A stretch of DNA of 42,275 nucleotides from Paludibacteraceae bacterium (GTDB taxonomy: Bacteria; Bacteroidota; Bacteroidia; Bacteroidales; Paludibacteraceae). The notes under the pieces were generated by a model. It did no database searches. It was not told the DNA's origin and was given only the letters and a program-made list of their open reading frames with translations. The stretch is taken from NCBI GenBank assembly GCA_017471285.1, contig JAFUUZ010000027.1, positions 1 through 42,275 of the forward strand, in the 5' to 3' direction. Of the stretch, positions 1-39,259 are shown one piece after another. Position numbers and translations under genes: made by a program. Positions within the stretch are counted from its first letter, which is position 1; the number at the start of each line of letters is the position of its first letter.

Positions 1-50
1 ACGACGGCAAACGAATAAGAGATAAAACAGAGATGCTGAGCTGTTGGCTA

Positions 51-773
51 TTATCTTTTGACTCTTTGTGGCTGTTTTAAATCGGCTGGATTTGGTTGTT
101 TATTTCCGCCGTTTAGTGGCGAAATTACCCCGACCCGAACACTCTCCTGCCGCGGTCTGCGAATAATATCGTTCTGATTTGCCTGGATTGTACGAATGAT
201 ATCGGTCAACCGATTATGCCGCCGTTTGTCTTTCAGCACCGTCAGCAGGAATGGATCGACAATATCGCCCTCAAGAGTGACATTTGCGCTATCGTACTCT
301 GTATTATACGAAAGCAGCTTGCCATCATCGATGTTTAAGGCACGTCGAAGCGCAAGCTGATAGGCGTAGCCATTGATATTAAAGCTACGCTCAGATTTCA
401 TATAATAGTACTGGCCGACATCACTGCGCCAGTCGATAACAAGCGATTCTGTCCCCTGGTGAATGCCTTCTTTTCCGATAAAGACTACCTTGGTCTCGAT
501 ATCGTCTGTCCCGTCAATTTCCGTATCCAAATCCATTCTTGCGAAATATGGGCTTGGTTTATAAGATCGATACTGATCTGCGTACCGTTCCTCCGACTGA
601 AGATCTTTGCGCATTTCGATATACCGCGTTCTATCTTCATAATCATAAGAGACAAAGCCGGATAGCTCCTTCTGAAGCGCGGCTTTTCTCGCTTCATAGG
701 AGCTGATAATCTGGTCGAGTCTATTCTCTACTCTTTTTAAGTTTTCAGTTTCTTCTACAAAGACCGGGTCCAC
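51..773 (-). CDS. Stand-alone N-terminal (HelD/UvrD-associated) domain protein, motor domain absent
   Basis: The 240-residue product resembles the N-terminal arm and 1A-proximal part of HelD-type (UvrD-like) helicases: a coiled-coil start (about residues 1-60), then 'PYFARMDL', 'VFIGKEGI', 'LVIDWRSDVGQYYY', 'DGKLLSYN' and 'DIIRTIQANQNDIIR'. In HelD enzymes the next segment is the Walker A loop (VxGxAGSGKT). Here the protein diverges after 'IIRRP' into a proline- and asparagine-rich tail and stops. The remaining 50 bases of the window contain no GSGKT in any frame on this strand. The start appears to be GTG at 773, preceded by GGGGTGAG and lying 21 bases after the PLD gene's stop, so it is probably translationally coupled. 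It is the last gene of the eight-gene operon seen here. It may be a dedicated DNA- or RNA-polymerase-binding subunit, or a truncated helicase. HelD similarity is a recognition by motif; the role is inference. Confidence 0.65.
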   Translation of the reverse strand: MDPVFVEETENLKRVENRLDQIISSYEARKAALQKELSGFVSYDYEDRTRYIEMRKDLQSEERYADQYRSYKPSPYFARMDLDTEIDGTDDIETKVVFIGKEGIHQGTESLVIDWRSDVGQYYYMKSERSFNINGYAYQLALRRALNIDDGKLLSYNTEYDSANVTLEGDIVDPFLLTVLKDKRRHNRLTDIIRTIQANQNDIIRRPRQESVRVGVISPLNGGNKQPNPADLKQPQRVKR

Positions 774-794
774 ACGCTCACCCCATCAAACTCT

Positions 795-1700
795 TTATCG
801 GAGAAAGATTCTTTGCGAATAATTTGGACGGTCAATTCCTATTTCTTCCATGTCCAATACAGAAATCCAGTTTAATAAATTCGCTAGAAGGACTTTAACT
901 TCTTTGCGGTATGGTCTTGGATCATTGAGGATAACACTATGTAATGCCGCAGATGCTGCCCCGAAGTATATCTCGTTATGCTCTTGCTCCGACAGCAATT
1001 TCATCAGCCACTGGAAGCATTTGCTTTCTCGAAAGGCATTCTTTATTTCATCTAGGTCTGCCCCCGGGAATGTGTTCAGAAAGATAAGATCCTCCAATGT
1101 AGCTGCCATCGGATCAAAACAGGATGGAAAATCTTCGGAAAAGAGAAGGGAAAAATCGGGGTGAAAAAACTTGTTGATTTCTTCCGGCCATTTTGCAGAT
1201 GCTCTCGGGGTATGGTGTGATTCCATGGAAGAAATCGCAGCCTTCATATCCGCATAAAGAGAGTCTGTCATCCTCACAGAACTACGGAAGAGATTTCTGA
1301 CTTGCTGCCGATCGCTGTCATCAATCTCATTAAGCACGGCCATTTCGTAGTTCCCTATACCGCCAATACTAAGCCCACTGCTAGTCGCATTTGCGCTCCC
1401 TAAAACGCAGCGGAGATTATCAAAAATATATGTTTTAGCATGTAGATCTAGCCGAAAAAACATACTCCACCCGTGCTCTTTGCAGTAGGGATACAGATCA
1501 AGATCTGTTGCTCCAGCCAGGACGTCTTCCGGTTTCAGTCTTACGATGAGATTCTTTACGAGAGGCCGATCAATAAAAGAGTCAAGATACTCAACCAGAG
1601 GCGTTTTACAATACGCCGAAATTAAGGTGAAGGATTCCGTAATATAAGAAAGCTCCATGCAAATGCGATCAAGGATTTGCTGAGAAATCAATATCGGCAT
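795..1700 (-). CDS. Phospholipase D-like (single HKD) nuclease, predicted restriction effector
   Basis: The 301-residue protein carries one HKD motif: H87-x-K89-x4-D94 followed by GSAN (residues 101-104), as in Nuc/BfiI-type PLD nucleases that work as dimers with one motif per chain. The C-terminal half (about 170-301) is helical and not recognised. The longer frame opens at 1766, but the start at 1700 is preferred: it has an excellent AGAGGAGG eight bases upstream, overlapping the end of the preceding GHKL gene (stop at 1718). It sits behind the helicase and GHKL ATPase and ahead of the HelD-like gene, all in one operon with DNA-phosphorothioation genes. I infer it cleaves DNA lacking the modification, guided or licensed by the two ATPases. 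No membrane segment is visible, so a nuclease is likelier than a lipid-active PLD. Confidence 0.8.
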   Translation of the reverse strand: MPILISQQILDRICMELSYITESFTLISAYCKTPLVEYLDSFIDRPLVKNLIVRLKPEDVLAGATDLDLYPYCKEHGWSMFFRLDLHAKTYIFDNLRCVLGSANATSSGLSIGGIGNYEMAVLNEIDDSDRQQVRNLFRSSVRMTDSLYADMKAAISSMESHHTPRASAKWPEEINKFFHPDFSLLFSEDFPSCFDPMAATLEDLIFLNTFPGADLDEIKNAFRESKCFQWLMKLLSEQEHNEIYFGAASAALHSVILNDPRPYRKEVKVLLANLLNWISVLDMEEIGIDRPNYSQRIFLR

Positions 1701-1717
1701 ACGGAATCCCTCCTCTT

Positions 1718-3502
1718 TCAGTTGTTTCGAATTTGCTGCAAATAACGGCGCAGCCGGGTATCCCACTCCTGCAGTAGCTCGTCATTTTGGTCCATGTTGT
1801 GAACATTCGTTTTGTTTATTGCCTGGGCAAGCGCCCCGATAAACAATTCAAAGGCCAACTTGTTTTCTTCATTCATTTGAGAGATGAATTCATTATAGAA
1901 GATGTGCGCCGTATTGATTTTGATCCTGACATTACCAAGACTAAAGTCCGTATCAAAGAACGAGCCATTTCTTCCCAGATTCACATAGGAAAGGATTGTG
2001 TCTTTGCGAAGAATCGCACGGATATCCTCTATTGTCGGATTCTCATTGCCTTGGTCGATAAGCTCCTGTCTCGCACGGTTCTCAAGCTCTTCCTCGGAAG
2101 TGTTCTTGCGCTCTTCCTGAGCCGCGCCTTCATCATCACCAAGATCATTTTCAGCCTGGGAAATAATACGCTCAGGCTCAGTAGACTCCGGTTCACTATC
2201 TTCTCCGGGATTTGTCCGCGAGTCTTTACGAAGTTCCTTGTTTGCCTCGACCATCCGGGTGATTGTATTTTTTACCTCGGTTGCAAGACGATCCCAGATT
2301 GTATCTTCAGCGTCGATATCTCTGTTCGTGCTATCATCATGGAGTTCCACTTGCTGCTTATTGTTTGAAACACCAAAGACTTCATCAAGCACAGGGTCAA
2401 AGCAGATCTCACAGCCCCACCAGCGATGGAAGGGATTGTTCACGCGATCATAGAAATCGAAAATACCGAAGTCTATCTCTCTGTTCGCGCGAACAATAGA
2501 AATGCCTTCAAGATTCTTTACAAATTTACCGAGTGGAGTGCTGCCGGGGTTTCCGGAGGGAAATGCAGTTTGATCGTAAAACTCTGGACGCACTTTTGCG
2601 AAACGAATCGTCACATCAGAAGTCCGGCTTTCTCCCGTTTTCTTATCTGTGTACGGGATGGCGATTGTTGTAATCCCATCCGGGTTCCCTTCTGTTCTGA
2701 ACGGCTCAAAGATCGGTTCAGTGCATCCGATATTGCTCCTCGGGCTGATGTTGCCAGGATCATTAGGATTCCCGAGCACATAGTTAGGCTTCATCAGGAA
2801 AAGAGGATCGTTAGGAAGCACATTAATTGCTTCACTCTCGTGACCCAAAGTAATAATCCGAATATTATGCGTCCCATCATTTATCAGATGGCGGAATTTC
2901 CGACCCAGCGAAAACTCCAGACGACTATTGAGGGCGCTCATCGTCTTGGGCTTTACATTATCGCAATTACGCCAATAGACAAGGGTTCCGTGTTCCGAAA
3001 AATCATATTCTTTCTGAGGTGTTCTGTACTTAATAAACTTTTTGAACATCTCGGGAATATCCTGAAGCACCGGGTCTTCAATTTCTTCTTGTTCGCCAGT
3101 CTTGACTTTTTCTATATCGAGCCAAACCTTATATGATTCATCAATATCATCTGTCCAGGAATATACCTCGACGTTGGGCGTAACATGGAGCGACGCCTGC
3201 GGAAGGCCAACACCAAAACGGCCCATTCCTCTGCGATCAGACTTGGTTGTAAACCCAATGCCCAAGCAGCTTGCGAGCCGATTAATCGTCATGCCGGTGC
3301 CATTGTCAAGAATAGCAAATTCATAAATCGCTTTTCTCCCACTGACAGGGTCAACGCGCTCATTCATAATGACAAAAATGTCTTTTGCTTCTGCCTCTAT
3401 AGAGTTATCTATGATTTCGGCTAGAGCACTATCAATGCTCTTGTAGCCACTGCTCCGAAGAGCATCGCCCATCTGTTTAATCTGAACTATGCTTTGTCCC
3501 AT
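1718..3502 (-). CDS. GHKL (HSP90/MutL/MORC-like) ATPase of the phosphorothioation operon
   Basis: The 594-residue protein begins with a GHKL ATP-binding fold. The N-box is 'ALAEIIDNSIEA' (about 27-38), the G1 motif is D66-NGTGM, and the G2 lid is 'GMGRFGVGL' (92-100). This arrangement is closest to MORC and MutL proteins, whose N-terminal domains dimerise on ATP binding and clamp DNA. Residues about 110-400 would be the S5/transducer region. Residues about 415-510 are very acidic and probably a flexible linker. The start at 3502 has AGGAGG nine bases upstream. The gene lies 18 bases after the helicase stop and 17 bases before the PLD start, so the three are surely co-expressed. Likely job: an ATP-gated clamp that couples target recognition to the PLD nuclease (inference). 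The GHKL fold is firm; the specific role is not. Confidence 0.85.
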   Translation of the reverse strand: MGQSIVQIKQMGDALRSSGYKSIDSALAEIIDNSIEAEAKDIFVIMNERVDPVSGRKAIYEFAILDNGTGMTINRLASCLGIGFTTKSDRRGMGRFGVGLPQASLHVTPNVEVYSWTDDIDESYKVWLDIEKVKTGEQEEIEDPVLQDIPEMFKKFIKYRTPQKEYDFSEHGTLVYWRNCDNVKPKTMSALNSRLEFSLGRKFRHLINDGTHNIRIITLGHESEAINVLPNDPLFLMKPNYVLGNPNDPGNISPRSNIGCTEPIFEPFRTEGNPDGITTIAIPYTDKKTGESRTSDVTIRFAKVRPEFYDQTAFPSGNPGSTPLGKFVKNLEGISIVRANREIDFGIFDFYDRVNNPFHRWWGCEICFDPVLDEVFGVSNNKQQVELHDDSTNRDIDAEDTIWDRLATEVKNTITRMVEANKELRKDSRTNPGEDSEPESTEPERIISQAENDLGDDEGAAQEERKNTSEEELENRARQELIDQGNENPTIEDIRAILRKDTILSYVNLGRNGSFFDTDFSLGNVRIKINTAHIFYNEFISQMNEENKLAFELFIGALAQAINKTNVHNMDQNDELLQEWDTRLRRYLQQIRNN

Positions 3503-3520
3503 GTTTCTCTTGCCTCCTAT

Positions 3521-5251
3521 TTATGACCAGTAAGAGTCAAAATGGTTAAACGCCATTTCTGGATTGAAGCGTCCTAAATTATCCTTCACGTCGACCAGCA
3601 AGCATTCTGCATTTCCGCCCATCATTGGTCCGCGCAATCCACGTCCCAGCATCTGGCTATAAAGGACGACCGACTGAGTTGGCCGGGTTATGAAGACGCA
3701 GCGAATATTTGTTGAGTCGAATCCCGTTGTTAAGACCTCGTAGTTTATGAGGATATTCACAGGATTTGTGCGATCTTTGAAAGCAGCAATGGCATCTGCT
3801 CGATCGGTTGCTGACATTTCTCCGATGACAAGTGTATTGGGGATACTTTCAAGTGAAAGCATATATGAAAGGAGTTTCGCATGCGTTACGGAACAGGCAA
3901 AGACAATTGTTGGGACATTTTCTGAAGAAAGCTCTCTGAGTTTTCTTAGAATTGCTGCATTGCGGCTTCTGTTTCGCCCAATCATTTCAAGCGCCGTTTT
4001 GCTAAAATCTTCATACCCATTAATTGTCATCGAAACCCGGATTCTTCTGATTTGATCCGCAGTAAAAGCCTCTTCGTAAGTAAGCTGTTCCTTTTGAATA
4101 TGCGAAAGGATACCTGCTTCCTGGAAATAATGAATGATGTTATTATCAGTTTCTGTGTTTAAGTAATCTAGCTTGGACAGATTAATCTGGTTCACTATGT
4201 CGGGATCAATGCGGATAATCCGGCCTTCGAACATATCAGAAAACAGCCCATTTTCCTCAGAAGATAAGGTTGTCCGTCCCGGTGTGGCCGTAAGCCCAAT
4301 AAGTGAGCGATCACACATTCCCGCTTTTTTTACCATAAGGCTCTCAACGAGCTGTCTAGTTTCCGTAGCGAGTGCTTTATGTGCTTCATCGAACACTATG
4401 AGGCGCGCGCTTTCTACGATTTTATTGAACAATGCCGGATTGCTCTGTTTTACAGCCTGGAGCTTTTGTATTCCACAGAACATCACGCCGCAAAACGCAT
4501 CGTCTCCAACAGGGATATCCCGTGTACCCCAGAGTTTATATGCTTTTACTGTCCCGCTGCCTAGATGGCTCCAAACACTTGTGAAGGTATCATAAGCTTG
4601 TTGGAGCAGCTCAGTTGTATGCGCAAGCCAAATGACCAGGCCCTCTTGGTGTAAGCTGAAATTGAAGTAGTGCACCAATGTGTGCATGGTTGTTTTCGTT
4701 TTTCCGGTTCCTGTCGGCATGTGAACCAACATGCGTTTCAGTTCGTTTGGTTTGTTGAGCTCGTTCAAAACCCGCTGCTTTATGACGAATTGATAATCTA
4801 ATAATTCGAAAAAACGATCTTCTGCTTGATGAGTAATAACAGAGGTTTCATCAAGAGTTTTCACATCGAAAATACTTGGAGACACACCTAGGATAGCTAT
4901 GAACTTGGAGAACACGGGCCCCTCTCTCCAGGGCATGGCAGCAACAGCAGATGCTTTTTGTTCTAATGATGCCGAGTCGCGTTTCCTTGAAGGCGGCAAC
5001 TCTTGATAGATTAAATCAATGTCTCTTTCCTCCATATGGAACAATACATCCTTGCGAAATGCCGGGTTGCGCAGGATGGCTGTTCCGTTTAGGTGGAGGA
5101 TCATCTCAGCTAACCGTTTTTTTGTAAGGGAAGAATACTCAGCTGATTCCCATTCAGAGACGAGCTGGTCTATAAGATCCTCTCCAAGATACTTCCTCAG
5201 CGCTTCACCAGAAAAGCGCATCATACAGGCTATTAACTTCGGATAATCCAT
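3521..5251 (-). CDS. Superfamily 2 DEAD/DEAH-box helicase of the phosphorothioation operon
   Basis: The 576-residue protein has a complete SF2 motor after a non-motor N-terminal region of about 160 residues. Motif I is 'MPTGTGKT' (178-185), motif II DEAH (288-291), motif III 'TATPGR' (321-326), followed by 'VLTTGFDSTN' (motif V) and 'QMLGRGLRG' (motif VI). The domain order resembles restriction-type helicases (type I HsdR/type III Res motors, COG1061-like) but no nuclease domain is attached. The start at 5251 follows a GGCGTGA ribosome-binding site and lies 15 bases after the cysteine desulfurase stop. It is followed directly by the GHKL ATPase and the PLD nuclease, which suggests a three-protein restriction complex. 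The known SspFGH module occupies the same place beside SspBCD; I could not confirm homology from memory of sequences. Confidence 0.88.
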   Translation of the reverse strand: MDYPKLIACMMRFSGEALRKYLGEDLIDQLVSEWESAEYSSLTKKRLAEMILHLNGTAILRNPAFRKDVLFHMEERDIDLIYQELPPSRKRDSASLEQKASAVAAMPWREGPVFSKFIAILGVSPSIFDVKTLDETSVITHQAEDRFFELLDYQFVIKQRVLNELNKPNELKRMLVHMPTGTGKTKTTMHTLVHYFNFSLHQEGLVIWLAHTTELLQQAYDTFTSVWSHLGSGTVKAYKLWGTRDIPVGDDAFCGVMFCGIQKLQAVKQSNPALFNKIVESARLIVFDEAHKALATETRQLVESLMVKKAGMCDRSLIGLTATPGRTTLSSEENGLFSDMFEGRIIRIDPDIVNQINLSKLDYLNTETDNNIIHYFQEAGILSHIQKEQLTYEEAFTADQIRRIRVSMTINGYEDFSKTALEMIGRNRSRNAAILRKLRELSSENVPTIVFACSVTHAKLLSYMLSLESIPNTLVIGEMSATDRADAIAAFKDRTNPVNILINYEVLTTGFDSTNIRCVFITRPTQSVVLYSQMLGRGLRGPMMGGNAECLLVDVKDNLGRFNPEMAFNHFDSYWS

Positions 5252-5266
5252 ACAATCACGCCTTTC

Positions 5267-6415
5267 TTAGATGTTTTCTTCAATATAGTCTAGTGCGGCT
5301 TGCAACTTCTCAAAATCCTTCTCTGTTGTAAAATAGCCGACACTAAACCGTACCGTTCCGGCGGGGAATGTTCCAAGGAATCGATGGGCGGTCGGTGCGC
5401 AATGTAGCCCTACGCGGCAAGCTATTCCCTGATCATTTAATACTTGTCCAATGCTGTCACTACTATATCCATTAAACACGCAGGAAACGACTCCTACCGT
5501 CGCAGCCTCACCCTTTATCGTGTGAATAAAGGGATAGTCCGACAGGATTTCAAGTAAGCGTTCTCTTGCCTTGCTCTCCCGCTCCCGTATAACCGAAATG
5601 CCAGTTTGCTTGCTCCATTTTAGTGCTGCATATAAACCCGCTATTGCCTGAACATTATGACTCCCTGCTTCATATTTTTCTGGGAGGATATCTGGCATAA
5701 GTGGGTTTGCGCTTTCAATACCTGTCCCTCCGAAAACCAGAGGCAAAAGGTCCACGTTCGGAGGTGCAATTACACCAGAGGCTCCAAAAGGTCCATAAAG
5801 AGTCTTATGGCCGGCAAAAACAGCATAATCCACCTGGGCAGCGATCAAGTCGACATCCACAAGTCCAGCGGTTTGAGACATGTCCGCAACTGTCACAGCG
5901 GAGTATTTCTTCGCAAGCGGAAAGATTTTCTCAATAGGGGCAATAACGCCACAAACATTGCTGGCGTGCGAAGCTATCACAACACTAGGCTGTGTATCCT
6001 GGAACTGGTATGCGATTTTTTCAAGCTGGTAGCTCAACGTGTTCCTGTCTACCGCCAGTTCGATTATGCGAAGCTTGTAGTCCTTTTGAATGTAGTTAAG
6101 GGTTCGCGTGACTGCATTATGCTCAAAAGGCGTAACATAGACCACCATCCCATCTTGCCATGGCAAGCCACGCAAAACCAGGTTAAGTGCCTCAGTTGCA
6201 GTCGGTTGAAATAGAACTTTTTTCCCTTGCGCATGAAAGAGCTCCAGCAAAAGATTGCGGGTATCTTCCATAACAGATGAAGCAGTGATTGCCGTGTCAT
6301 ATGATCCCCTGCCAATATTCACGCCATAATTCCGGTAAAAGGTATCCATGTATTGGTATACTTCTTCCGGTTTGGGGAATGTGGTTGCTGCATTATCAAA
6401 GTATGCCATTTCCAT
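5267..6415 (-). CDS. sspA: Cysteine desulfurase, SspA/DndA-like
   Basis: The 382-residue product is a class V aminotransferase-fold cysteine desulfurase. It starts 'AYFDNAATTFPKPEEV', has the cofactor-stacking 'FEHNA' (His99), the PLP lysine K204 in 'AGHKTLYGPFG', and the persulfide-carrying cysteine C339 in 'GLHCAPTAH'. The sequence style is that of the SufS/CsdA-like 'aminotransferase class V' branch. It would mobilise sulfur from L-cysteine and hand it as persulfide to the SspD-like ATP pyrophosphatase. Position in the operon (12 to 20-base gaps on both sides) ties it to DNA sulfur modification rather than to Fe-S or tRNA thiolation. ATG at 6415 is taken as the start (GGCGGTGA upstream); a second ATG two codons later cannot be excluded. 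Confidence 0.9.
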   Translation of the reverse strand: MEMAYFDNAATTFPKPEEVYQYMDTFYRNYGVNIGRGSYDTAITASSVMEDTRNLLLELFHAQGKKVLFQPTATEALNLVLRGLPWQDGMVVYVTPFEHNAVTRTLNYIQKDYKLRIIELAVDRNTLSYQLEKIAYQFQDTQPSVVIASHASNVCGVIAPIEKIFPLAKKYSAVTVADMSQTAGLVDVDLIAAQVDYAVFAGHKTLYGPFGASGVIAPPNVDLLPLVFGGTGIESANPLMPDILPEKYEAGSHNVQAIAGLYAALKWSKQTGISVIRERESKARERLLEILSDYPFIHTIKGEAATVGVVSCVFNGYSSDSIGQVLNDQGIACRVGLHCAPTAHRFLGTFPAGTVRFSVGYFTTEKDFEKLQAALDYIEENI

Positions 6416-6436
6416 ATGGCAATCACCGCCTTTCTC

Positions 6437-9400
6437 TTAGCAAAGCGACTCTAATACTTCGATCAGTACCTGCCGCTTCTCGCTGTCGCTTATCGCCATG
6501 CCCATTTCATCAAGATTTGCTGTTATCTCATGTTTCAGCAGCTTAGCCATTCTAGAATACTCTATCCGATCAAAGGTTCGAACTTGAGTTTCACCGTTTG
6601 GCCCCACTGAAGTAAGAATATATGTATTGGAGCTGCCTTTGTCCAATGACGCGTCCATGTCATTGAACTCCGTTACATGTGTCTTTAGATCTGTAACCGT
6701 CTTTCGGAATACTTTAACAGTTTCACTGTTCCAGTCCTCAATCCGCAGACCTGTAGCAGGTTTCGCAAGACGGATAATAAAACTCGTATCGTCATTACCT
6801 GCTTCAGAAAACTGTGAGAGCAAGACAGCCTCAACACCATCAAAGACATGCTCTTTCGTTTTCTGAGCGAGCTTTTCGTACCAGCTAGACGCTGCAGAAG
6901 ATGCCGTTTGCCCCTCAACAGAATTCGGCGCAAAGATAGCTGACACATCTTTTGCAAGTCCGTCTGTAAGATTGTCTAATGCCTTATCATAGAGTTCTTT
7001 TGCCCTCTCAATACAAGCGCTTGTTTCGACTGTGAACCCATCAAAGCCAAACACTTTAGGAAGGGACTCGAACAAAAACTCGTGCGGATTTATAGACGGT
7101 ACTTTCAATGCATTGGCGAAACGAATGTTTTGCTTCTCAATCGCGTGGAATTGCTCGCCTCCGACATATAGCTCTCGCGCCTCTTTTGCATACTTAGGAA
7201 GAGCAATGTACCAGCGCTGCATCGCTCGGACGACATAAAGGAAAGAATTGACGTTCTTTTCTCTTGCTAAAATGTGCTGAGAAAACAGACTTTCCAAGTT
7301 TTTAATATAGTCTGCTTTTTCCTGGCTCCAATCGATTAATTTTGCCGTGTATGCTTCTGGCTTGGCATTAATACTGTTGAGAAGTTCCGCATTTATCTCC
7401 AGCTCCTGGCCATAGGAACTAATCGTTAGGTGATCCTTATAGCTATGAAGAACTGCAGCAACATAAAGAGGTATGGGGCCCCTCTTCATGCCAATACCAA
7501 GTTCAGGTCGCGTAAGCTCATCATATAGAGCAGAAAAATATGAGCCGCTCTGATCTAACCCACTGTTAGCAAAGAACTGATCGATATGCTGTAGCACATT
7601 AGCTAACCGCTCATCTGGGCAATCTGAAATGTGGATGCTCGGGCTGCTTTTTATATCGTCTACTACGCCAGGAACAGTGAGTGCGCTCCGCATGATTGAA
7701 ACATCCTGCCCGGTCCCAACCAAGCCAAGCATTGGACTCAGTTCAGATTGTAACAAGCCCCGTACCACCTTTGTTCGACTGTTGATGGTATTAGTGGGCA
7801 AATCATTCTTATTCAGCGTCTCATTGTTGATTCGTGGCGTCCGGTTAAAAACTGTTTCACATATTTCAGAAAGCTTTTGTGATAGCTGGGCTTTTCTGTA
7901 GATTGCAACTTTATTACCGCAGTGATAATACTCTGCCTGTCGGAGTTCCGGGCGGGTAAAGGTCATGATAAAGGAGTCCAGTACCTCACCCATATCCTCA
8001 TAATAGATATGGTATTCGGCAAGCAGCGCCTCATCGCCATCCGCTTCATTTATGAGTTTTACTAAGGCATTATAAGCGTAAGCACTACTGGCAATATCCT
8101 CATATTTCAGGGGAAGGACAAAAACTGTTCTTCTTGCATCAGTGGTATTTTGTCCCAGATAATCACGAAGTTCAGGAATCTGCTCCTCCGAGTCAGGGAG
8201 AATAGCATACACAACGCCATCTGCCTGACTGCCTCCTATACGAAGTGTCCAGTCCTTTACCTCCATCAAATGGCTGCCCTGAATAAATCGAAAGTCAAAA
8301 TAGCGGATAATCGCATTTTCGTCGTTATAGCGCGTCGGATAAAGGTAAGTATCACTGGTATATTCTTCGAGAATATCCTTAACACTTCCGATCATCGTCT
8401 GCCGTTTGATCTCCGATTCAATTGCTTCCCGGACATTTTCGTTAGCTTCTTTTAGTCTAAGATAATTGTTGCTCTTTTTAGCATAGATAACATACTCCCG
8501 CTCTTCCAGATTTTTGAGGGCGGTACTTACATCCGATTCCGAAAAAGCCCCGGCGAAAGATGCAATAACCTTATCGGCTAATGGCGGGAATTTTTCGAAC
8601 TGATTTACGATGTATATCAGCGCGAGAGTTTTTACAATCTTTGCTTCTAGGCTTTTTCGATCAAGCTTTGCAAGAATACGATTAGAAAGAGCGTACATTT
8701 TGAAAATGTCAGAAGTGTACACTTCCTTTTTCAAAAGGGGCTCAAAATAGTCGTAGATTGCATCCGGGGTTAAAATATTTTGCGTGCCATGATCCAAATT
8801 ATCAACAAGGGTGTGGCGATTGTGTGCAGAGATGAATGTAAAAAGGGTACGCTCGTTTTGTGCAACGAGCTCCGATAACCGCGGCAGCAAAAACACTGTT
8901 GTAGGATGAAGCGGGTAACCGCCATATACTACATAGTCCCGCAGCTCCGGTGCTAAATCATTGAAAAGAGCCTCACTCTCGACAAATTTGCTCGCCCAGG
9001 AGAAATACTCTCCATGTGTGGTGCAGTACTCTCCCCGAAATGCTTCGGTTTTCCCAATGGCAGTAGCCATAATCTCATATAGCTGGCCATAATTCGTATG
9101 CATTTCAAGATGTGTAAACCGCTCAGAAACGCCTCTCCAGCCATCCACCTTATTCTTGGGAAGACGGTCAATATAGTTTTCAATGTCTTTATGGGCAATA
9201 AGCAGTAGGTGCATCTGGTCCGCCTTTGACCGGTTGCACTTTTCTGCGAAGTCCTGAAGCATCTTAATATCAGAGATTGAAGTTCCCCGAATATTCGCTT
9301 CAAGATACTTGCTAAACTCGTCGTATACGACAAAAAGGCCCTGGTATCCTCTATCTTTCAATGCAGCGGCAATTGTTGAATAAAGCTCTACAACGTCAAA

Positions 9401-10066
9401 ACCCAGGAACGGATTGAACTCTCCTCCCGAAGTCAGCCTAGGATAGATTTCGACGAACGTCTCATATGCAGAGGCATCGAACTCGCTCAGCCTTGCCTGG
9501 AATTCTTCAATAGGCATGGGCGCAATAGCCTCAACAAAACGTGCATATGTTTCCGGGAAATCCTTCTCCCACATTTGCAGTTTATTGTTCGCCGCAACGA
9601 AATGAGTGTCCGGCATGAGATCCTCAAGCCCGGCATCCTTTAGCGCAAGCTGAATAGCATATAGGAAAGACTGATTAAGGCTTGTGCTGCTCCCCTGAAT
9701 GATAACCGGGAGAAGTCTTTCAGAGGAATGCATATACTCATACACGTACGAATACAAATCCGGGTTATATTCCTCTATTGCTTCCCAAATGCGCTCAAAT
9801 ATAGGGAGATTCTCCCTCTCACGCATCATAGCAAGAAGCATTAAAACGATATGAGATTTTCCTTTTCCATAGGGTCCGATTAATATATGGGCTCTATCTG
9901 TCGAAGAAGGATGTGTGCTCAGAATGATAGGCTCGATAATCTCAAGTGCGGAGGTAGAAGGAATAAAATCTTCTATTTTCCCCATATTGTTGAGATCATA
10001 GGCTAAATTTACAGACTTTTGAAAGCCTGGTGCTATGCGAATATAGCTTTTAACATCCATACTCAT
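6437..10066 (-). CDS. sspC: Large P-loop ATPase, SspC-like
   Basis: This 1209-residue protein has a Walker A motif 'GPYGKGKSH' (64-72) and a Walker B 'VVYDE' (246-250) followed by 'FSKYLEA'. The rest is long and mostly helical with no other domain that I recognise. The arrangement of an early Walker A followed by a long C-terminal region recalls the BrxC/PglY class of defence ATPases. It lies between the DUF4007 gene (12 bases upstream) and the cysteine desulfurase (21 bases downstream), the position expected for the SspC ATPase of the SspABCD phosphorothioation system. Known family role: ATP hydrolysis during PT insertion, possibly remodelling DNA. The start at 10066 has GGAG seven bases upstream. 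Its length seems large for SspC, so a divergent variant is possible. Confidence 0.72.
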   Translation of the reverse strand: MSMDVKSYIRIAPGFQKSVNLAYDLNNMGKIEDFIPSTSALEIIEPIILSTHPSSTDRAHILIGPYGKGKSHIVLMLLAMMRERENLPIFERIWEAIEEYNPDLYSYVYEYMHSSERLLPVIIQGSSTSLNQSFLYAIQLALKDAGLEDLMPDTHFVAANNKLQMWEKDFPETYARFVEAIAPMPIEEFQARLSEFDASAYETFVEIYPRLTSGGEFNPFLGFDVVELYSTIAAALKDRGYQGLFVVYDEFSKYLEANIRGTSISDIKMLQDFAEKCNRSKADQMHLLLIAHKDIENYIDRLPKNKVDGWRGVSERFTHLEMHTNYGQLYEIMATAIGKTEAFRGEYCTTHGEYFSWASKFVESEALFNDLAPELRDYVVYGGYPLHPTTVFLLPRLSELVAQNERTLFTFISAHNRHTLVDNLDHGTQNILTPDAIYDYFEPLLKKEVYTSDIFKMYALSNRILAKLDRKSLEAKIVKTLALIYIVNQFEKFPPLADKVIASFAGAFSESDVSTALKNLEEREYVIYAKKSNNYLRLKEANENVREAIESEIKRQTMIGSVKDILEEYTSDTYLYPTRYNDENAIIRYFDFRFIQGSHLMEVKDWTLRIGGSQADGVVYAILPDSEEQIPELRDYLGQNTTDARRTVFVLPLKYEDIASSAYAYNALVKLINEADGDEALLAEYHIYYEDMGEVLDSFIMTFTRPELRQAEYYHCGNKVAIYRKAQLSQKLSEICETVFNRTPRINNETLNKNDLPTNTINSRTKVVRGLLQSELSPMLGLVGTGQDVSIMRSALTVPGVVDDIKSSPSIHISDCPDERLANVLQHIDQFFANSGLDQSGSYFSALYDELTRPELGIGMKRGPIPLYVAAVLHSYKDHLTISSYGQELEINAELLNSINAKPEAYTAKLIDWSQEKADYIKNLESLFSQHILAREKNVNSFLYVVRAMQRWYIALPKYAKEARELYVGGEQFHAIEKQNIRFANALKVPSINPHEFLFESLPKVFGFDGFTVETSACIERAKELYDKALDNLTDGLAKDVSAIFAPNSVEGQTASSAASSWYEKLAQKTKEHVFDGVEAVLLSQFSEAGNDDTSFIIRLAKPATGLRIEDWNSETVKVFRKTVTDLKTHVTEFNDMDASLDKGSSNTYILTSVGPNGETQVRTFDRIEYSRMAKLLKHEITANLDEMGMAISDSEKRQVLIEVLESLC

Positions 10067-10078
10067 AATGATGCTCCA

Positions 10079-10972
10079 TTACCTATTCAAGGAGGTATAG
10101 TAAGCGTTAATGCATTCTTGGTAGGTCAGATCTGATAGTATTTTTACCACGTCAAGGCCTGCCGTCCTAATAACTTCAACATATCCAAGCCTCGCCAAAT
10201 GATCCAGCTCTGCAGTTAAGGAGACAATATCTAAATTGAACACTTTCCCGATATTACATGCAGCATGCTGAAGCTCGTCTATTTTTATCTCTCGCCGGCC
10301 TTCTGCTTGATCGGCAATTACCGCTAGCAGAATATATGGATGAATGATCCCGCTCTTTGGCGTCGCTTTCCGGAAAACTCTGTCACGGTTTCCGTTCTGT
10401 TCTGTTACTTCAATTAGGCCTAACTCATCTAAGGGGCAGGCAATATTGCTTTCCGGTTGGGCTTTTGCCGGGTTCAGTTTTTTGCGTTCAACATAAGTGT
10501 TGATAATGCAGTTAAAATCATCCTCTAAGGAAGCTTCTGCGGGATACTCTTCTTCCATTGCAGCAAATCTGCTGAGCCCTTCAACGAAATCATTTCGCGT
10601 GAACTCATTCATATCAAAATGGTTGAAGAAATAGTACCACGCTGTCGCAAGTTCTTTATTTGTGGCCAGCTTGTAATGTAGGAGCCAAAGCGTTCCCAGT
10701 TCTTCCATATAGGGATCGTTTTCCTGGATGATCTGTGCAAAATCCGTCAGCGTCTGTGCGCGGCTCCTGCCTTTAACAGAGCTTTCCGTTGTAAGCTGCG
10801 TAGCCTGCATCCAGTAGCGCAGAGACTTAACCATATTTGAGCCCATTCCCAGGACGTCCATTGGGTTTTCGCTCTTGTCTATGAAGACATTCTGGTTGTT
10901 CTGAACTCCCCGGAGGCCTTTATAAAGCCATCCTTTTCGGATAAAGAAAGTTTCATGTGCTCTGAATTTCAT
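10079..10972 (-). CDS. sspB: DUF4007 family protein, SspB-like
   Basis: The 297-residue product shows the DUF4007 signature from its first residues: 'FRAHETFFIRKGWLYKG', 'LGMGSNMVKSLRYWMQA', 'DPYMEELGTLWLLHY' and 'TAWYYFFNHF'. DUF4007 proteins occur next to PAPS-reductase-like genes in phosphorothioation loci, where I take the family to correspond to SspB, reported as the DNA nickase that opens the strand for sulfur insertion. The C-terminal third looks like winged-helix DNA-binding segments. No obvious nuclease motif stands out by eye. It lies 19 bases after the SspD-like gene and 12 bases before the ATPase. The equation of DUF4007 with SspB is from memory of family associations; the DUF4007 call itself is strong. 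Confidence 0.8.
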   Translation of the reverse strand: MKFRAHETFFIRKGWLYKGLRGVQNNQNVFIDKSENPMDVLGMGSNMVKSLRYWMQATQLTTESSVKGRSRAQTLTDFAQIIQENDPYMEELGTLWLLHYKLATNKELATAWYYFFNHFDMNEFTRNDFVEGLSRFAAMEEEYPAEASLEDDFNCIINTYVERKKLNPAKAQPESNIACPLDELGLIEVTEQNGNRDRVFRKATPKSGIIHPYILLAVIADQAEGRREIKIDELQHAACNIGKVFNLDIVSLTAELDHLARLGYVEVIRTAGLDVVKILSDLTYQECINAYYTSLNR

Positions 10973-10991
10973 ACGCTTTCCCCTAACAGAG

Positions 10992-12716
10992 TTATTTTAC
11001 AGTTTTCAGATACTTGTCCATTAAGCATCCGCCATCGAGATACTTGGGGGATACACAAGCCTTGCAGTGCTTGCATTTTGCAGGATTAATCATGTACATA
11101 TCGCCAATGATTGAGATAGCACCGTGCTTGCATACAGACTCACATTTCAAGCATTTTCGGCACGCATTATACTTCCGAATCTGGTATGAGACCATTCGTT
11201 GCAGATCTTCATGATCCGCAACATTCATCGTCTTTACCTTAACCGCATAGTCGTATCCATCCTGCTGAAACGGCTGAATAGAGAGAATCGGAACATTCCC
11301 CTTCACATCTAACACGACGACCTCTTTGATCAGCTTTCTTCCAAGTTCTTTAGATACTTTTCCGAATGGAACAAAGAGGTTATAAAAACTATCGTCAAGA
11401 GGTTTATTGATCTGATAAACCTTGGCATGGTCTTCCGTCGTGCAGTTAGTAAAGCGGATTTTTACATCCTCCGCTGCTTTAACACCATTTCCGCCTTGCC
11501 GTGCTTTCCACTTTCCATCATCGACATAAACTTCGGGATCAGGTTTCCCTATCTGCTTTGCAAAGTCGATAAGAAAAGCTCTCCATTTTACCGACTGCTC
11601 CGGCATATAGATACGGGAAAGGAATTGGGCGCGCGAATTGTTATTAGGGCAGCACCAGCATCCAACTCGATCATAGCCAAGTCTATATGCATCATTGAAA
11701 TCAACGTGCTTTCCAAGCAGATACAGCCAAATGTCAATGTCTTTCCAGAAGAAGATCGGAGATGCAACCGATTGCTTCTGGATCTTCACCGATTCCGAGT
11801 GTTCCTCAAGGCGATTATATTTACTTCTACTAACTGATTCACATTTCCGAATCCCGTAGAATGTAAGGATCTTCTCATCGCCGTAGAGATTATTGATTAC
11901 GCGCGTAATAGGCCCTGTTTTGAACATGGAGCAGCACCAGCGCATCATCCGGGCCGGAGGCCCAATGTCTTCACAGACATTATAGAAATCTTGCTCTTTG
12001 TTCTTTGCTATTTTGAATATTGCACGGGGATTGTTTTTCCGGAATCTCTCAACATATTCAATCGTCAGAGGGAACTCGAGCGTCGTATTGCCAAACACGT
12101 GAACTATGCTTGGATTGCTTAGTGCGCGAACAGTGAGATCTTCTGTTACAGTTGAGTCTTTTCCGCCTGAAAAAGAGATCATTAATTGATCAATGCCATA
12201 TCTTTTTGCCGCACTCTGGATAAAAACAAAAGCTTCGTTTTCTATATACTCCAGGTGCGTCTTATTTGCATCGATGAAGGTTTGGATTTGCTGATCGAAT
12301 ACCGGCTGATATTGCAAAAGATTCTCTTCTTCATATTTTTTTAGTTCTTCAATTATAGAAGAAACGTCAAGCGTCTTGAATAAGCTTGTGGGAACTGTTT
12401 TGGCTTTTCCGTCAATATAGTAGCGATTGTCTTGCGCCCATACTGATCGCTCTGCATATGCAAAAGGCTTCGCTATCAGGATTTCAATCAACAATCTTTC
12501 CTGGGGAAAAACCGGGCGAATATCCGATGAAAGGTAGGGGGCCTCGCCTCCGCAGATCGGGCAGATGTCTTTCCCTTCATCATTAAGCGCTTTGATGATG
12601 GGCGTATTGCAGTGCTTACACCAGTGCACTTCAAACGGGATCTCAGTTTCAGTTTTAGAGCCACAAACTTCGCAATACTCGTGCTGTGCTTCTCTATTGC
12701 ATACTTTACACCACAA
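10992..12716 (-). CDS. sspD: PAPS-reductase/DndC-like ATP pyrophosphatase with zinc ribbons and ferredoxin domain, SspD-like
   Basis: TTG at 12716 is the likely start: AAGGAGG lies eight bases upstream, and the product then begins with a zinc ribbon. The frame is open to 12779. The 574-residue protein has three parts. Residues 3-55 hold four CxxC pairs (zinc ribbons). The central ATP-pyrophosphatase domain has the PP-loop 'SGGKDST' (183-189) plus 'RWCC' and 'GCWCCPNNN', cysteines suited to the [4Fe-4S] cluster known in DndC. The C-terminus is a two-cluster ferredoxin: CxxCxxCxxxC at 519-529, and CxxCxxC at 548-554 with C564. It would adenylate DNA phosphate and accept sulfur from the cysteine desulfurase. 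The built-in ferredoxin suggests self-contained electron supply. It is the first gene of the operon. Confidence 0.82.
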   Translation of the reverse strand: MWCKVCNREAQHEYCEVCGSKTETEIPFEVHWCKHCNTPIIKALNDEGKDICPICGGEAPYLSSDIRPVFPQERLLIEILIAKPFAYAERSVWAQDNRYYIDGKAKTVPTSLFKTLDVSSIIEELKKYEEENLLQYQPVFDQQIQTFIDANKTHLEYIENEAFVFIQSAAKRYGIDQLMISFSGGKDSTVTEDLTVRALSNPSIVHVFGNTTLEFPLTIEYVERFRKNNPRAIFKIAKNKEQDFYNVCEDIGPPARMMRWCCSMFKTGPITRVINNLYGDEKILTFYGIRKCESVSRSKYNRLEEHSESVKIQKQSVASPIFFWKDIDIWLYLLGKHVDFNDAYRLGYDRVGCWCCPNNNSRAQFLSRIYMPEQSVKWRAFLIDFAKQIGKPDPEVYVDDGKWKARQGGNGVKAAEDVKIRFTNCTTEDHAKVYQINKPLDDSFYNLFVPFGKVSKELGRKLIKEVVVLDVKGNVPILSIQPFQQDGYDYAVKVKTMNVADHEDLQRMVSYQIRKYNACRKCLKCESVCKHGAISIIGDMYMINPAKCKHCKACVSPKYLDGGCLMDKYLKTVK

Positions 12717-12725
12717 AACGCTCAC

Positions 12726-13079
12726 CTCCTTCAGCCTATTATCTATTAAATCATATTGCAAGTCCAATAAACAGGACACTCAAATGACAGGGGAGCCTTG
12801 ACACTGAATTTGCTTTTGTTCATGCCCCGATTATCATCGATTCTTCAGCGGATCCGCAAAAATAGCCAGCAGGATATATCCCTACAAAGATAAATTATAA
12901 CACAAGTCGACAGCTTTTTATAGACCTTATCGTTAATCCGGCTAACATTATTTCTATATAACCACAACAGCCCGCCCTAAGAAGTACGGTCTTAGGCTCA
13001 TACGTCATTAAAGTTTCTGAGTTGATCGACTTCAGTAGTGTTTTCTGAAATACCGATCTTTTTTGCGGCATAACCGCTA
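12726..13079 (-). promoter_or_regulatory. Leader and promoter region of the phosphorothioation operon
   Basis: About 350 bases separate the HTH gene (ending 13080) from the operon start and hold no convincing gene. On the minus strand an extended -10 box, TGT-TATAAT, lies at 12902-12894; no good -35 is seen at 17 bases, which fits extended -10 promoters. It would give a leader of about 170 bases. The leader contains an ATG-initiated frame of 25 codons ending just before the sspD ribosome-binding site, with a poor Shine-Dalgarno. The short frames between 12895 and 13183 look like noise. Confidence 0.4.
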
Positions 13080-13289
13080 TCAATCGATATCATCGTACGC
13101 TTTCCCCGGCACGGCTTCCATGCCAAACACTGCAAGGGCTTGATTGACTTTATCCATTCGGACAGTCTTCTTTCCCTGCTCAAGATCGCGCACGAAACGG
13201 AGGCCGAGCCCGGACCTCATGGCAAACTCCTCCTGGGTCAAGCCGGCCTTTTTTCGTTCTGTTTTCACATACTCAGCGATCATATTCAT
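13080..13289 (-). CDS. HipB-like (XRE family) HTH transcription regulator
   Basis: The 69-residue product is a small Xre/HipB-type (y4mF-like) repressor with the helix-turn-helix in 'GLTQEEFAMRSGLGLRFVRDL' region (about residues 18-38; 'LTQEEFAMRSG' and 'LGLRFVRDLEQGKKTVRMD'). Antitoxin repressors of this size normally precede a HipA kinase, but none follows: downstream is the leader of the phosphorothioation operon. The same frame stays open up to an ATG at 13520 that has its own AAGGAG site, so a 146-residue product is possible; the extra 77 residues match nothing I know. Upstream lie a promoter candidate and a perfect palindrome. It could repress itself or the phosphorothioation operon, which begins about 180 bases downstream (inference). 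Confidence 0.7.
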   Translation of the reverse strand: MNMIAEYVKTERKKAGLTQEEFAMRSGLGLRFVRDLEQGKKTVRMDKVNQALAVFGMEAVPGKAYDDID

Positions 13290-13355
13290 AACAACTATAT
13301 TATACCCGTTCGGGGCATTATTTGAAAGAGCTTTTTTGAGAATTCTGCCAGAATA

Positions 13356-13384
13356 AGTATAATACTGTCTACAAGCCGTAGCAA
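13356..13384 (-). promoter_or_regulatory. Candidate sigma-A promoter for the HTH gene
   Basis: On the minus strand, a -35 TTGCTA (13384-13379) and a -10 TATACT (13361-13356) are separated by exactly 17 bases. Transcription would start about 60 bases upstream of the HTH start at 13289. It lies inside the longer open frame, which argues for the shorter HTH product. Confidence 0.4.
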
Positions 13385-13459
13385 CAGCCCCAATCGGGTA
13401 TAAAATGACATTGCCTTTTCGCAGACTTTGTTCTGCTTTTCTCATAGGTTGCATTGAAA

Positions 13460-13481
13460 CTATATCGCTGTAGCGATATAG
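13460..13481. promoter_or_regulatory. Perfect 22-bp palindrome, candidate HTH operator
   Basis: Two perfect 10-base arms (CTATATCGCT / AGCGATATAG) flank a 2-base centre. The core TATCG-N6-CGATA resembles the layout of HipB operators (TATCC-N8-GGATA). It lies about 75 bases upstream of the promoter candidate for the neighbouring HipB-like gene, so autoregulation is plausible. Confidence 0.5.
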
Positions 13482-13520
13482 CGAGTTCAAAAGAGAATCA
13501 TTTATTGGAAGGTCAAACAT

Positions 13521-14668: not shown

Positions 14669-14705
14669 GAACTTCAACTCCTTCTTTGCCTGATCCTGTG
14701 GTTAT

Positions 14706-24056: not shown

Positions 24057-24068
24057 GGTTTACCTCCC

Positions 24069-38595: not shown

Positions 38596-38653
38596 AATAT
38601 CAGACACATAGTTGAGCCTTGTGTGTTTGATATTTTACAAAACAGGTATGCTT

Positions 38654-39259
38654 ATGGATATTCAAAATCAAGTAAAAAATATAATTGTTCAGCAAGGCGG
38701 GATTGCCAAATCAGCCGATTTTGTCGCTGCCGGCATTTCCGCAGTTCAAGTTGTTTCTTTGTGCAACGATGGCTTTCTTGAACGTGTCCGTCACGGTTAT
38801 TACACTCTTGCTGAGAATGACACCGCTTCGGAAGAGCAAATGCTTGCAAAGCTATTTCCAAAGGGGATCGTATGTGTTGAGTCGGCTCTTTTCCATTACG
38901 GATATAGCGATTATGCTCCTCGCAAATGGTCCATTGCAATTCCCCGCTCCATGTCACGGACGAAGCTTGAAGATAACATTCTTCCCTTGCAAGCTTATTA
39001 CGTTCAGCAAGATATCTATGAGCTGGGGAAAACAAAAGATACTTTTAACGGAGTAATGCTGCCTGTTTATGATCGTGAGCGAACTATCTGCGACTGCTTC
39101 AAATTTCGCACAAGGCTTGATACTGAGACTTTAAGCAAGGCGCTCAACGCATATGCAAATGACCCGGGCAAAAACCTGCAGAATCTTTCAATATACGCAA
39201 AGAAGCTGCATGTGTATAAAAAAGTTACCGAAATAATGGAGGTACTGCTGAATGGCTGA
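38654..39259 (+). CDS. abiEi: AbiEi-type antitoxin / transcriptional repressor
   Basis: The 201-residue product has the AbiEi layout: an N-terminal winged helix ('VKNIIVQQGGIAKSADFVAA', 'RVRHGYYTL') and a C-terminal antitoxin domain ('VCVESALFHYGYSDYAPRKW', 'YDRERTICDCFKFR'). AbiEi proteins repress their own operon and neutralise AbiEii (type IV toxin-antitoxin behaviour). ATG 38654 is chosen because of the AGG seven bases upstream; the frame is open back to 38612. Its end overlaps the toxin start by eight bases. Confidence 0.92.
   Translation: MDIQNQVKNIIVQQGGIAKSADFVAAGISAVQVVSLCNDGFLERVRHGYYTLAENDTASEEQMLAKLFPKGIVCVESALFHYGYSDYAPRKWSIAIPRSMSRTKLEDNILPLQAYYVQQDIYELGKTKDTFNGVMLPVYDRERTICDCFKFRTRLDTETLSKALNAYANDPGKNLQNLSIYAKKLHVYKKVTEIMEVLLNG

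What the first reader, a model, noticed from the sequence alone, without database searches (positions are those of the whole stretch)
51..12716. SspDBCA-like DNA phosphorothioation operon fused to a helicase/GHKL/PLD/HelD-domain restriction arm
Eight minus-strand genes with gaps of 12-22 bases form one unit. The sequence shows a PP-loop enzyme, DUF4007, a P-loop ATPase and a cysteine desulfurase (modification), then SF2 helicase, GHKL ATPase, single-HKD nuclease and HelD-like N-domain. Known: SspABCD makes single-strand phosphorothioates and pairs with SspE or SspFGH. No SspE-like (DUF262/DUF1524) gene is present. Inference: a variant or new restriction partner, with four rather than three genes.
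Basis: partly seen in the sequence, partly recalled or inferred. Interest (0 to 1): 0.85.

Follow-up and report, generated by a model that had tools for sequence, protein, structure and literature searches.

The report
Third cutting arm for DNA-sulfur defence
Next to genes that should mark the bacterium's own DNA with sulfur sits an apparently undescribed three-gene set (a helicase, a MORC/MutL-like ATPase and a PLD-type nuclease) that recurs with those marking genes across many bacterial phyla and probably attacks invading DNA, which could explain part of why many such marking systems have no known cutting partner.

Summary
The operon is real and not a chance cluster. SspD, SspB, SspC and a cysteine desulfurase (predicted single-strand phosphorothioate modification) are followed by an SF2 helicase, a MORC/MutL-like GHKL ATPase and a single-HKD PLD nuclease. 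The eighth gene, 'HelD-like', is cut by the contig end; beside PLD it was seen in only 1 of 80 related loci, so a four-gene arm is not supported.

A GHKL-only search gave 361 candidate relatives; I examined the best 80. The helicase is adjacent in 77, SspB/C/D genes are near in 74, and a PLD domain is present in 61. In 395 genomes of the phylum, all 7 with a full-length match are among the 26 with DUF4007 (p = 2e-9).

None of the arm proteins matches SspE/F/G/H models. Helicase and GHKL tree distances agree closely (r 0.95-0.97), and one GHKL-PLD fusion exists. I read it as a third Ssp restriction arm built on a helicase-GHKL pair. No function was tested. Whether it attacks unmarked DNA or is switched on by the mark is open. 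Ten searches of an open-licence paper library found no description of it.

The parts
10992..12779 (-).
   Evidence: PAPS_reduct 1.5e-28; BrxP 3e-82, SspD 6.9e-12; SGGKDS motif read directly
10079..10972 (-). SspB-like DUF4007 protein
   Evidence: PF13182 4.1e-85; SspB 3.2e-63
6437..10066 (-). SspC-like P-loop ATPase, 1209 aa
   Evidence: SspC 1.1e-118, BrxC 2.1e-40; GPYGKGKS read directly
5267..6415 (-). SspA-like cysteine desulfurase (EF2568/SufS-like)
   Evidence: TIGR01977 3.2e-119, over its cut-off; SspA 6.4e-37
3521..5251 (-). SF2 DEAD/DEAH helicase, RadD/ResIII-like, 576 aa: arm gene 1
   Evidence: ResIII 3.3e-21; RadD; PDB RadD 6jde 1.6e-15; adjacent to GHKL in 77 of 80 loci
1718..3502 (-). 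GHKL ATPase of MORC/MutL type, 594 aa: arm gene 2
   Evidence: HATPase_c_3 7.6e-19; profile A4 finds MORC2/4/3 structures, best 7.8e-10; E29, D32, N33, D66, G70, G94, G97, G99 invariant in 60 of 60 rows
795..1700 (-). Single-HKD PLD-superfamily predicted nuclease, about 301 aa (mechanical ORF starts at 1766): arm gene 3
   Evidence: PLDc_2 9e-6; H87, K89, G101, S102, N104 invariant in 54 of 54 rows; motif in 61 of 61 PLD-bearing loci
51..773 (-). HelD-like accessory gene, cut off at the contig end; not part of the conserved set
   Evidence: HelD_BACSU 1.3e-9; 50% identity to the L041 HelD-like protein over 214 aa, then no match
1..135 (.). Contig-end stretch with no match to the HelD-like relative; probable assembly break or insertion

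Best explanation
This is a phosphorothioate-based restriction-modification locus with a third kind of Ssp restriction arm. Steps that rest on family knowledge: cysteine desulfurase, the SspD/BrxP-type PP-loop enzyme, SspB (DUF4007) and the SspC ATPase place sulfur on one strand of short host DNA motifs. Inferred here: the SF2 helicase and the MORC/MutL-like GHKL ATPase form one DNA-scanning motor and clamp that checks DNA for the sulfur mark; on unmarked (invading) DNA it loads or licenses the PLD nuclease, which cuts it. Shown here by sequence: the parts list, intact motifs, conserved synteny, close helicase-GHKL tree-distance agreement and one GHKL-PLD fusion. Not shown: any PT, any cleavage, any phage protection, and the sign of mark recognition.
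For: 1) Association. The GHKL-alignment scan of one genome for each of 84,980 species gave 361 candidate relatives; in the best 80: helicase adjacent 77, at least one of SspB/C/D 74, all three 62, cysteine desulfurase 61, PLD domain 61. Converse: 395 genomes of the phylum, 26 with DUF4007; all 7 full-length GHKL matches (357-719 bits; next best 140) are among the 26, hypergeometric p 2.3e-9, or 3.5e-8 without the window (that both calls drew the same 395 is inferred from the shared handles). Helicase and PLD are present in all 7. Class sample: the 4 genomes with GHKL matches below 1e-30 are all among 16 with DUF4007 of 395, p 1.8e-6. 2) One unit: helicase and GHKL tree distances r 0.97 (n 68), 0.95 within clade 1, 0.97 outside; SspB-SspC-SspA r 0.88-0.97; 0 of 500 permutations reach these. 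3) Physical link: one GHKL-PLD fusion of 885 aa, L104. 4) Active sites: PLD HxK...GSxN in 61 of 61; helicase Walker A in 69 of 78; GHKL D-x-G-x-GM in 80 of 80 and ExxDN in 76 of 80 by pattern. 5) SspB/C/D genes in 60 of 61 PLD-bearing loci versus 14 of 19 PLD-less ones (Fisher p 0.0025; 0.031 without two short contigs). 6) Not the known arms: no SspE/F/G/H match; an Agrobacterium locus holds a GHKL gene of this family beside complete SspFGH.
Against: No function was tested. Five of the 80 loci (L075, L081, L098, L099, L104) lie in genomes where no DUF4007 was found; L098 is titled a complete genome, so the helicase-GHKL pair can exist without SspB. L104 carries the PLD fusion and a cysteine desulfurase but no DUF4007. 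In 8 PLD-less cyanobacterial loci an HNH protein precedes the helicase, but there the helicase ORF lacks its first ~180 residues with Walker A, and that part is nowhere in the locus; this may be one inherited event that disabled the helicase, so it is poor evidence for a nuclease exchange. Six of 19 PLD-less contigs end within 2.3 kb after GHKL, so PLD may lie beyond. Tree distances across the two halves are weaker (GHKL or helicase against SspB, SspC or desulfurase r 0.26-0.62 within subsets), so arm and modification module are partly reshuffled; PLD is only moderately tied to helicase and GHKL (0.47-0.69). Permutations do not remove shared ancestry. Only the best 80 of 361 relatives were seen. 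In the Agrobacterium locus the helicase looks degenerate and the third gene is not a PLD. SspE coexists with this arm in some loci, so defence-island clustering could add to the co-occurrence.
Confidence: 0.7

Rival explanations
1. An independent defence system (helicase + paraMORC-type GHKL + nuclease, not reading phosphorothioates) that merely tends to sit beside Ssp genes in defence islands.
For: The helicase-GHKL pair occurs in 5 of 80 genomes without a DUF4007 match. Tree distances between arm and modification module are only moderate within subsets. PMC2292703 (parts 1-2 of 4 read, plus search passages) describes MORC/paraMORC ATPases with SF2 helicases and nucleases in methylation-based RM systems.
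Against: All 7 full-length matches in 395 genomes fall in the 26 DUF4007 genomes. One gene order recurs in clade 1 across Clostridia, Treponema and a Coriobacteriaceae MAG. Of the five genomes without DUF4007, none shows a separate PLD gene next to the pair (L075's contig is short).
Confidence: 0.17
2. A PT-sensing arm like SspE: the phosphorothioate mark on host DNA activates the complex, and no restriction of unmarked DNA occurs.
For: SspE lies directly before helicase or GHKL in L082, L088 and L113. PMC8092258 (parts 1-2 and Discussion read) reports that SspE needs the mark to act.
Against: Motor-clamp-nuclease make-up resembles multi-protein restriction arms more than the single-protein SspE. 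The rarity of PLD without SspB/C/D (1 of 61) fits either sign.
Confidence: 0.3
3. Type-4 BREX (BrxP-BrxC-PglZ-BrxL) that has lost its usual effectors.
For: The PP-loop protein is BrxP-like (3e-82); PMC12839542 says BREX-4 and Ssp share the SspB/C/D homologues.
Against: SspC matches Ssp models far above BrxC (1.1e-118 against 2.1e-40), and no PglZ- or BrxL-named family was listed for the eight proteins (that these libraries hold such models is recalled, not checked).
Confidence: 0.04
4. The eighth, HelD-like gene is a functional fourth component.
For: It follows PLD by 21 bases here, and an intact 1357-aa relative sits in the same place in L041.
Against: Not seen beside PLD in the other 79 loci (some end soon after PLD); the slot is variable.
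Confidence: 0.08

Closest known systems
SspABCD-SspFGH (Vibrio anguillarum FF-93; PMC8092258, parts 1-2 of 5 and Discussion read)
   Same: Ssp-type PT modification genes next to a separate three-gene restriction cassette
   Different: SspF has a Walker A motif and SspH an FtsK/SpoIIIE-like end; the window proteins match none of PADLOC's SspF/G/H models, and an Agrobacterium locus holds a GHKL gene of this family beside SspFGH
SspABCD-SspE
   Same: Same modification family; SspE can sit beside helicase-GHKL (L082, L088) or GHKL (L113)
   Different: SspE is one DUF262+DUF1524 protein; none is in this operon
MORC/paraMORC GHKL ATPases with SF2 helicases and nucleases in RM systems (Iyer 2008, PMC2292703, parts 1-2 and passages read)
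   Same: GHKL ATPase + SF2 helicase + nuclease logic; MORC2/4/3 are the nearest solved structures by sequence
   Different: The parts read describe DNA methylases as the modification; the main text has no PAPS or phosphorothioate mention (figures not held)
PbeA of DndCDEA-PbeABCD (passages of PMC10853773 read)
   Same: PT-linked; per that paper an HKD nuclease fused to an SF2 helicase; the helicase part is related (hhalign 97.2%)
   Different: The PLD profile is not detectably related to the one PbeA protein tested (0.3%); no GHKL; Dnd rather than Ssp modification
Type-4 BREX (PMC12839542, section 34 and section 35 part 1 read)
   Same: BrxP-type PP-loop protein with ferredoxin tail; shared SspB/C homologues
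   Different: No PglZ or BrxL listed among the eight proteins

Membership tests
Ssp phosphorothioate modification module | SspB (DUF4007), SspC ATPase and SspD PP-loop protein encoded together | tested here: met
   SspB 3.2e-63, SspC 1.1e-118, SspD 6.9e-12 (BrxP-type form, 3e-82); DUF4007 4.1e-85
Ssp phosphorothioate modification module | Single-strand PT in host DNA | not testable with these tools
   needs LC-MS/MS
SspE | DUF262 + DUF1524 protein matching SspE models | tested here: not met
   none among the eight proteins; one SspE model over the 54.7%-complete own genome gave no match
SspFGH | Proteins matching SspF, SspG and SspH models | tested here: not met
   positive control in the Agrobacterium locus. 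In the own genome one SspH model hit only the C-terminal part, in an 858-aa FtsK-like frame
Type-4 BREX | PglZ and BrxL with BrxP and BrxC | tested here: inconclusive
   no PglZ- or BrxL-named family listed for the eight operon proteins, but I did not verify that the libraries hold such models; two proteins of a presumed BREX-like locus (L168) also gave no such name
MORC/paraMORC GHKL ATPases | GHKL ATP-binding motifs with MORC-like relatives | tested here: met
MORC/paraMORC GHKL ATPases | MORC-specific S5 motif GhXhhpXXRhl | tested here: inconclusive
   GISIVRANREI (window) fits 10 of 11 positions by eye; the tenth is an invariant E (E342) instead of hydrophobic; motif text
DISARM | DrmA helicase, DrmB and methylase with DrmC PLD | tested here: not met
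   only a weak DrmC match of the PLD (1.1e-7); no other DISARM-named family listed for the eight (DISARM make-up recalled)
PbeABCD | HKD-SF2 fusion protein PbeA with PbeB-D | tested here: not met
   helicase part only (3e-11), no PbeC match among the eight proteins

The most novel reading that the evidence does not exclude
Helicase plus MORC-like GHKL is a general 'mark-reading engine' for phosphorothioated DNA: a clamp and motor that traps unmarked DNA and accepts different cutters (a PLD gene, a GHKL-PLD fusion, in some lineages SspE). It would be the third Ssp restriction arm and one of the main missing partners of solitary-looking Ssp systems, and a MORC-type ATPase tied to a DNA backbone mark rather than a base mark.
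Probability: 0.32. Interest if true: 0.86.

Novelty: new variant of a known kind. Interest (0 to 1): 0.72.

Why it matters
Many sspBCD genomes have no known restriction partner: PMC8092258 counted 2,678 sspBCD occurrences, of which 196 had sspFGH, 199 had sspE and a further 36 had both (found with single reference sequences as queries, so lower bounds). PMC7464106 (passages read) says nearly half of PT strains lack dndFGH/sspE and pbeABCD and takes this as a sign of other functions. In the two samples here, 9 of 36 distinct DUF4007 genomes carry the helicase-GHKL-PLD arm. In the 26 of the phylum sample only 1 had a full-length SspH and none a full-length SspE, using one model each. If the arm works, a good part of the 'orphan' PT modification systems are ordinary two-part defence systems, and a MORC-type ATPase would be linked to a DNA backbone mark, a directly testable question.

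Tried and rejected
Four-gene arm with HelD: not supported, HelD-like gene beside PLD in 1 of 80 loci. SspFGH or SspE homologues under another guise: rejected by PADLOC models (controls 64 and 97). Type-4 BREX: unlikely, no PglZ or BrxL listed. PLD plus helicase as a split PbeA: helicase related, PLD not detectably. Viral reservoir: the window GHKL protein gave no match in viral contigs (close relatives only). My first count called L104 PLD-less; a later search showed a GHKL-PLD fusion, so 61 replaces the 60. My first reading of the ~760-aa cyanobacterial proteins as DndB-like was wrong for L082, L088 and L113, which are SspE; L035's is a weak DndB match. A strict helicase Walker A pattern was met in 58 of 78; with any residue at the variable place it is met in 69 of 78, the nine others being one fragment (L053) and the eight HNH loci with a shortened helicase. 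DEAH is DECH or DEVH in five loci (L060, L061, L062, L065, L066). Promoter and terminator scans found no excess over shuffles. Papers: ten searches listed no paper that describes helicase-GHKL-PLD with SspBCD; most listed papers were seen only as listings, some lists were capped (40 of 69, 25 of 87, 25 of 49), only open-licence PMC text is held, and Xiong 2020 and the Annual Review 2024 were not read.
Full report
What is there. The window is a whole contig (C82) of a 1.55-Mb, 87-contig, 54.7%-complete genome. Its closest named relatives for the GHKL protein are an uncultured Flavonifractor MAG and an Oscillospiraceae MAG (68% and 65% identity), so it is probably an Oscillospirales-type gut bacterium (inference). 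Eight minus-strand ORFs from 12779 down to 51 form one run with 12-21 base gaps. Family scans give: BrxP/SspD-type PP-loop protein, SspB (DUF4007), SspC, SspA-like cysteine desulfurase, RadD/ResIII-like SF2 helicase, GHKL ATPase, PLD, and the first part of a HelD-like protein. None of the eight matches a PADLOC SspE, SspF, SspG or SspH model at E 0.001.

The HelD-like end. The 240-aa ORF aligns with residues 4-216 of a 1357-aa L041 protein at 50% identity, then stops matching. The relative continues directly into a Walker A motif and ends in a RecQ-like segment. The last roughly 135 bases of the contig do not match it, and bases 1-130 occur nowhere else in the genome, so an assembly break or an insertion is likely. 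Among 80 related loci a HelD-like gene next to PLD is seen only in L041; some contigs end soon after PLD. Beyond PLD the relatives carry GmrSD-type, DndB-type or other genes.

Relatives. With the GHKL protein alone, a plasmid search gave 36 records, 10 covering at least 80% of the query. I read six of these regions. Five have DUF4007, helicase and PLD with the GHKL gene (Treponema, Pleomorphomonas, Planktothrix, Trichormus, Mesorhizobium). The sixth, Agrobacterium, has helicase-like and GHKL genes next to complete SspFGH, with a third gene that is not a PLD and a helicase that looks degenerate. The alignment-based scan of 84,980 species genomes gave 361 candidate relatives; the best 80 were kept (L041-L120), the other 281 were not seen. 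By record titles they span Clostridia, Treponema, a Coriobacteriaceae MAG, Bacillaceae, cyanobacteria, Streptomyces, Mycobacterium, alpha-, beta- and gammaproteobacteria, Acidobacteriota, Anaerolineae, a Nannocystis, a Gemmatimonadales and an Armatimonadetes MAG.

Counts over these 80: helicase present 78, directly next to GHKL 77 (median gap -16; eight of these helicases are shortened, see below); at least one of SspB/C/D 74; all three 62; cysteine desulfurase 61; PLD domain 61 (60 separate genes and one GHKL-PLD fusion, L104). The six loci without SspB/C/D are L075, L081, L098, L099, L104 and L105; L075 and L105 are contigs under 7 kb. A whole-genome search of those six genomes and L106's found DUF4007 only in the genomes of L105 and L106 (2 of 7), so five remain without. 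Of 61 PLD-bearing loci 60 have SspB/C/D; of 19 PLD-less loci 14 do (Fisher p 0.0025; 0.031 when the two short contigs are left out). Six of the 19 PLD-less contigs end within 2.3 kb after GHKL, so this contrast is weak. In the clade around the window (L041-L068) 27 of 28 loci have the long BrxP-type D, and the order D-B-C-A-helicase-GHKL-PLD is kept apart from L065 (starts inside SspC), L053 (broken up) and L042 (a GmrSD-type gene between A and helicase). In five of these loci whose gaps I measured, 27 of 30 gaps lie between -17 and 28 bases; the others are 933, 82 and -136.

Converse test. DUF4007 was found in 26 of 395 genomes of the phylum. The GHKL profile on 395 genomes drawn by the same rule gave 7 full-length matches (357-719 bits), then a gap to 140 bits and below; all 7 are in DUF4007 genomes (p 2.3e-9), and all 7 also have helicase and PLD. 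In a class sample the 4 GHKL genomes below 1e-30 of 395 are all among the 16 with DUF4007 (p 1.8e-6). Together, 9 of 36 distinct DUF4007 genomes carry the arm. In the 26, one SspH model was full-length in 1 genome (nearly all other hits cover only its FtsK-like end) and one SspE model was full-length in none; single models, so lower bounds.

Is it one machine? Tree-distance correlations show two tight cores: helicase-GHKL (0.95-0.97) and SspB-SspC-desulfurase (0.88-0.97). Across the cores they drop to 0.26-0.62 within subsets; PLD is intermediate. Helicase and GHKL therefore travel as a pair, while pair, nuclease and modification module are partly reshuffled. Of the 14 PLD-less loci with SspB/C/D, 3 have SspE directly before helicase or GHKL (L082, L088, L113) and 8 have an HNH_4-family protein before the helicase (three of the nine HNH-bearing loci were scanned with Pfam, the rest matched by profile); L072, L093 and L094 showed no substitute. 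But in all 8 PLD-less HNH loci the helicase ORF starts near residue 180 of the full-length form, without Walker A, and the missing part is not found in the locus. They are close cyanobacterial relatives, so this may be one event, and an inactive helicase is possible. I therefore do not count HNH as a proven exchange. PLD-bearing L090 also has the HNH protein, and L089 also has an SspE-like protein.

Activity. The PLD family keeps HxK...GSxN in 61 of 61 loci. The GHKL family keeps its ATP-site residues in 60 of 60 aligned rows (by simple patterns D-x-G-x-GM 80 of 80 and ExxDN 76 of 80), and its nearest solved relatives by sequence are MORC2, MORC4 and MORC3. The window helicase has GTGKT and DEAH motifs. 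By sequence these look like active enzymes; no assay was seen.

Mechanism and its limits. Reported for relatives (PMC8092258): SspBCD marks CpsCA on one strand; SspFGH damages unmarked DNA and harms PT-free cells; SspE needs the mark. By analogy I infer that the helicase-GHKL pair reads PT status and licenses the nuclease. The scarcity of PLD without SspB/C/D (1 of 61) fits an arm that is harmful without the mark, but it also fits a mark-activated arm. That decision needs experiment.

Novelty. Ten searches of the open-licence PMC library listed no description of this set with Ssp genes; most listed papers were not opened. In print are: the GHKL-helicase-nuclease theme in methylation RM systems (PMC2292703, parts 1-2 and passages), the ferredoxin-tailed SspD form (PMC12839542), and PLD-helicase fusion in PbeA (PMC10853773, passages). 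PADLOC gives only distant matches for the three arm proteins. Verdict: a new variant of a known kind, widespread and testable.

Noticed in passing
L104:9953-12610: Natural GHKL-PLD fusion protein of 885 aa in a Pleurocapsa MAG, next to a cysteine desulfurase but without DUF4007 in the draft genome.
   Followed up: partly
L076, L078, L080, L083, L084, L086, L097, L115: Helicase ORF lacking its first ~180 residues (Walker A) with an HNH_4-family gene at the junction, in eight cyanobacterial loci; origin (insertion, deletion or split gene) unexplained.
   Followed up: partly
L157, L158, L162, L165 (DUF4007 loci): Proteins of 807-817 aa recur beside SspB/C/D; three tested (L157, L158, L162) have no PADLOC match. 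L158's is followed by a distant GHKL gene. Possibly a further unknown Ssp partner.
   Followed up: no
L156:700-2904 and L159:975-3188: SspBCD loci carrying a PbeA-like (1111 bits) and a PbeC/DndD-like protein: Dnd-type restriction parts next to Ssp modification genes.
   Followed up: no
L151 and L155: Two SspB-like/SspC-like pairs in one locus, with SspD between them.
   Followed up: no
L176:2514-3713 (G653): A second, C-terminal-half GHKL paralogue between GHKL and PLD.
   Followed up: no
window 13080-13520 and 13574-14677 (-): HTH protein and a Fic/DOC protein with a winged HTH just upstream of the operon.
   Followed up: no
window 38612-40106 (+): AbiEi/AbiEii type IV toxin-antitoxin pair on the same contig.
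   Followed up: no
window 19383-21557 (-): SNF2-family helicase, 724 aa, on the same contig; context not studied.
   Followed up: no
window 22278-30011 (-): Two surface-type proteins (S-layer homology and InlB-type repeats; 592 and 1980 aa) with long open frames on the opposite strand.
   Followed up: no
L095 (record named Chryseobacterium sp. ISL-80): Its genes score very close to those of the Cytobacillus locus L096 (e.g. SspC 1010 and 1022 bits); the organism label may be wrong.
   Followed up: no
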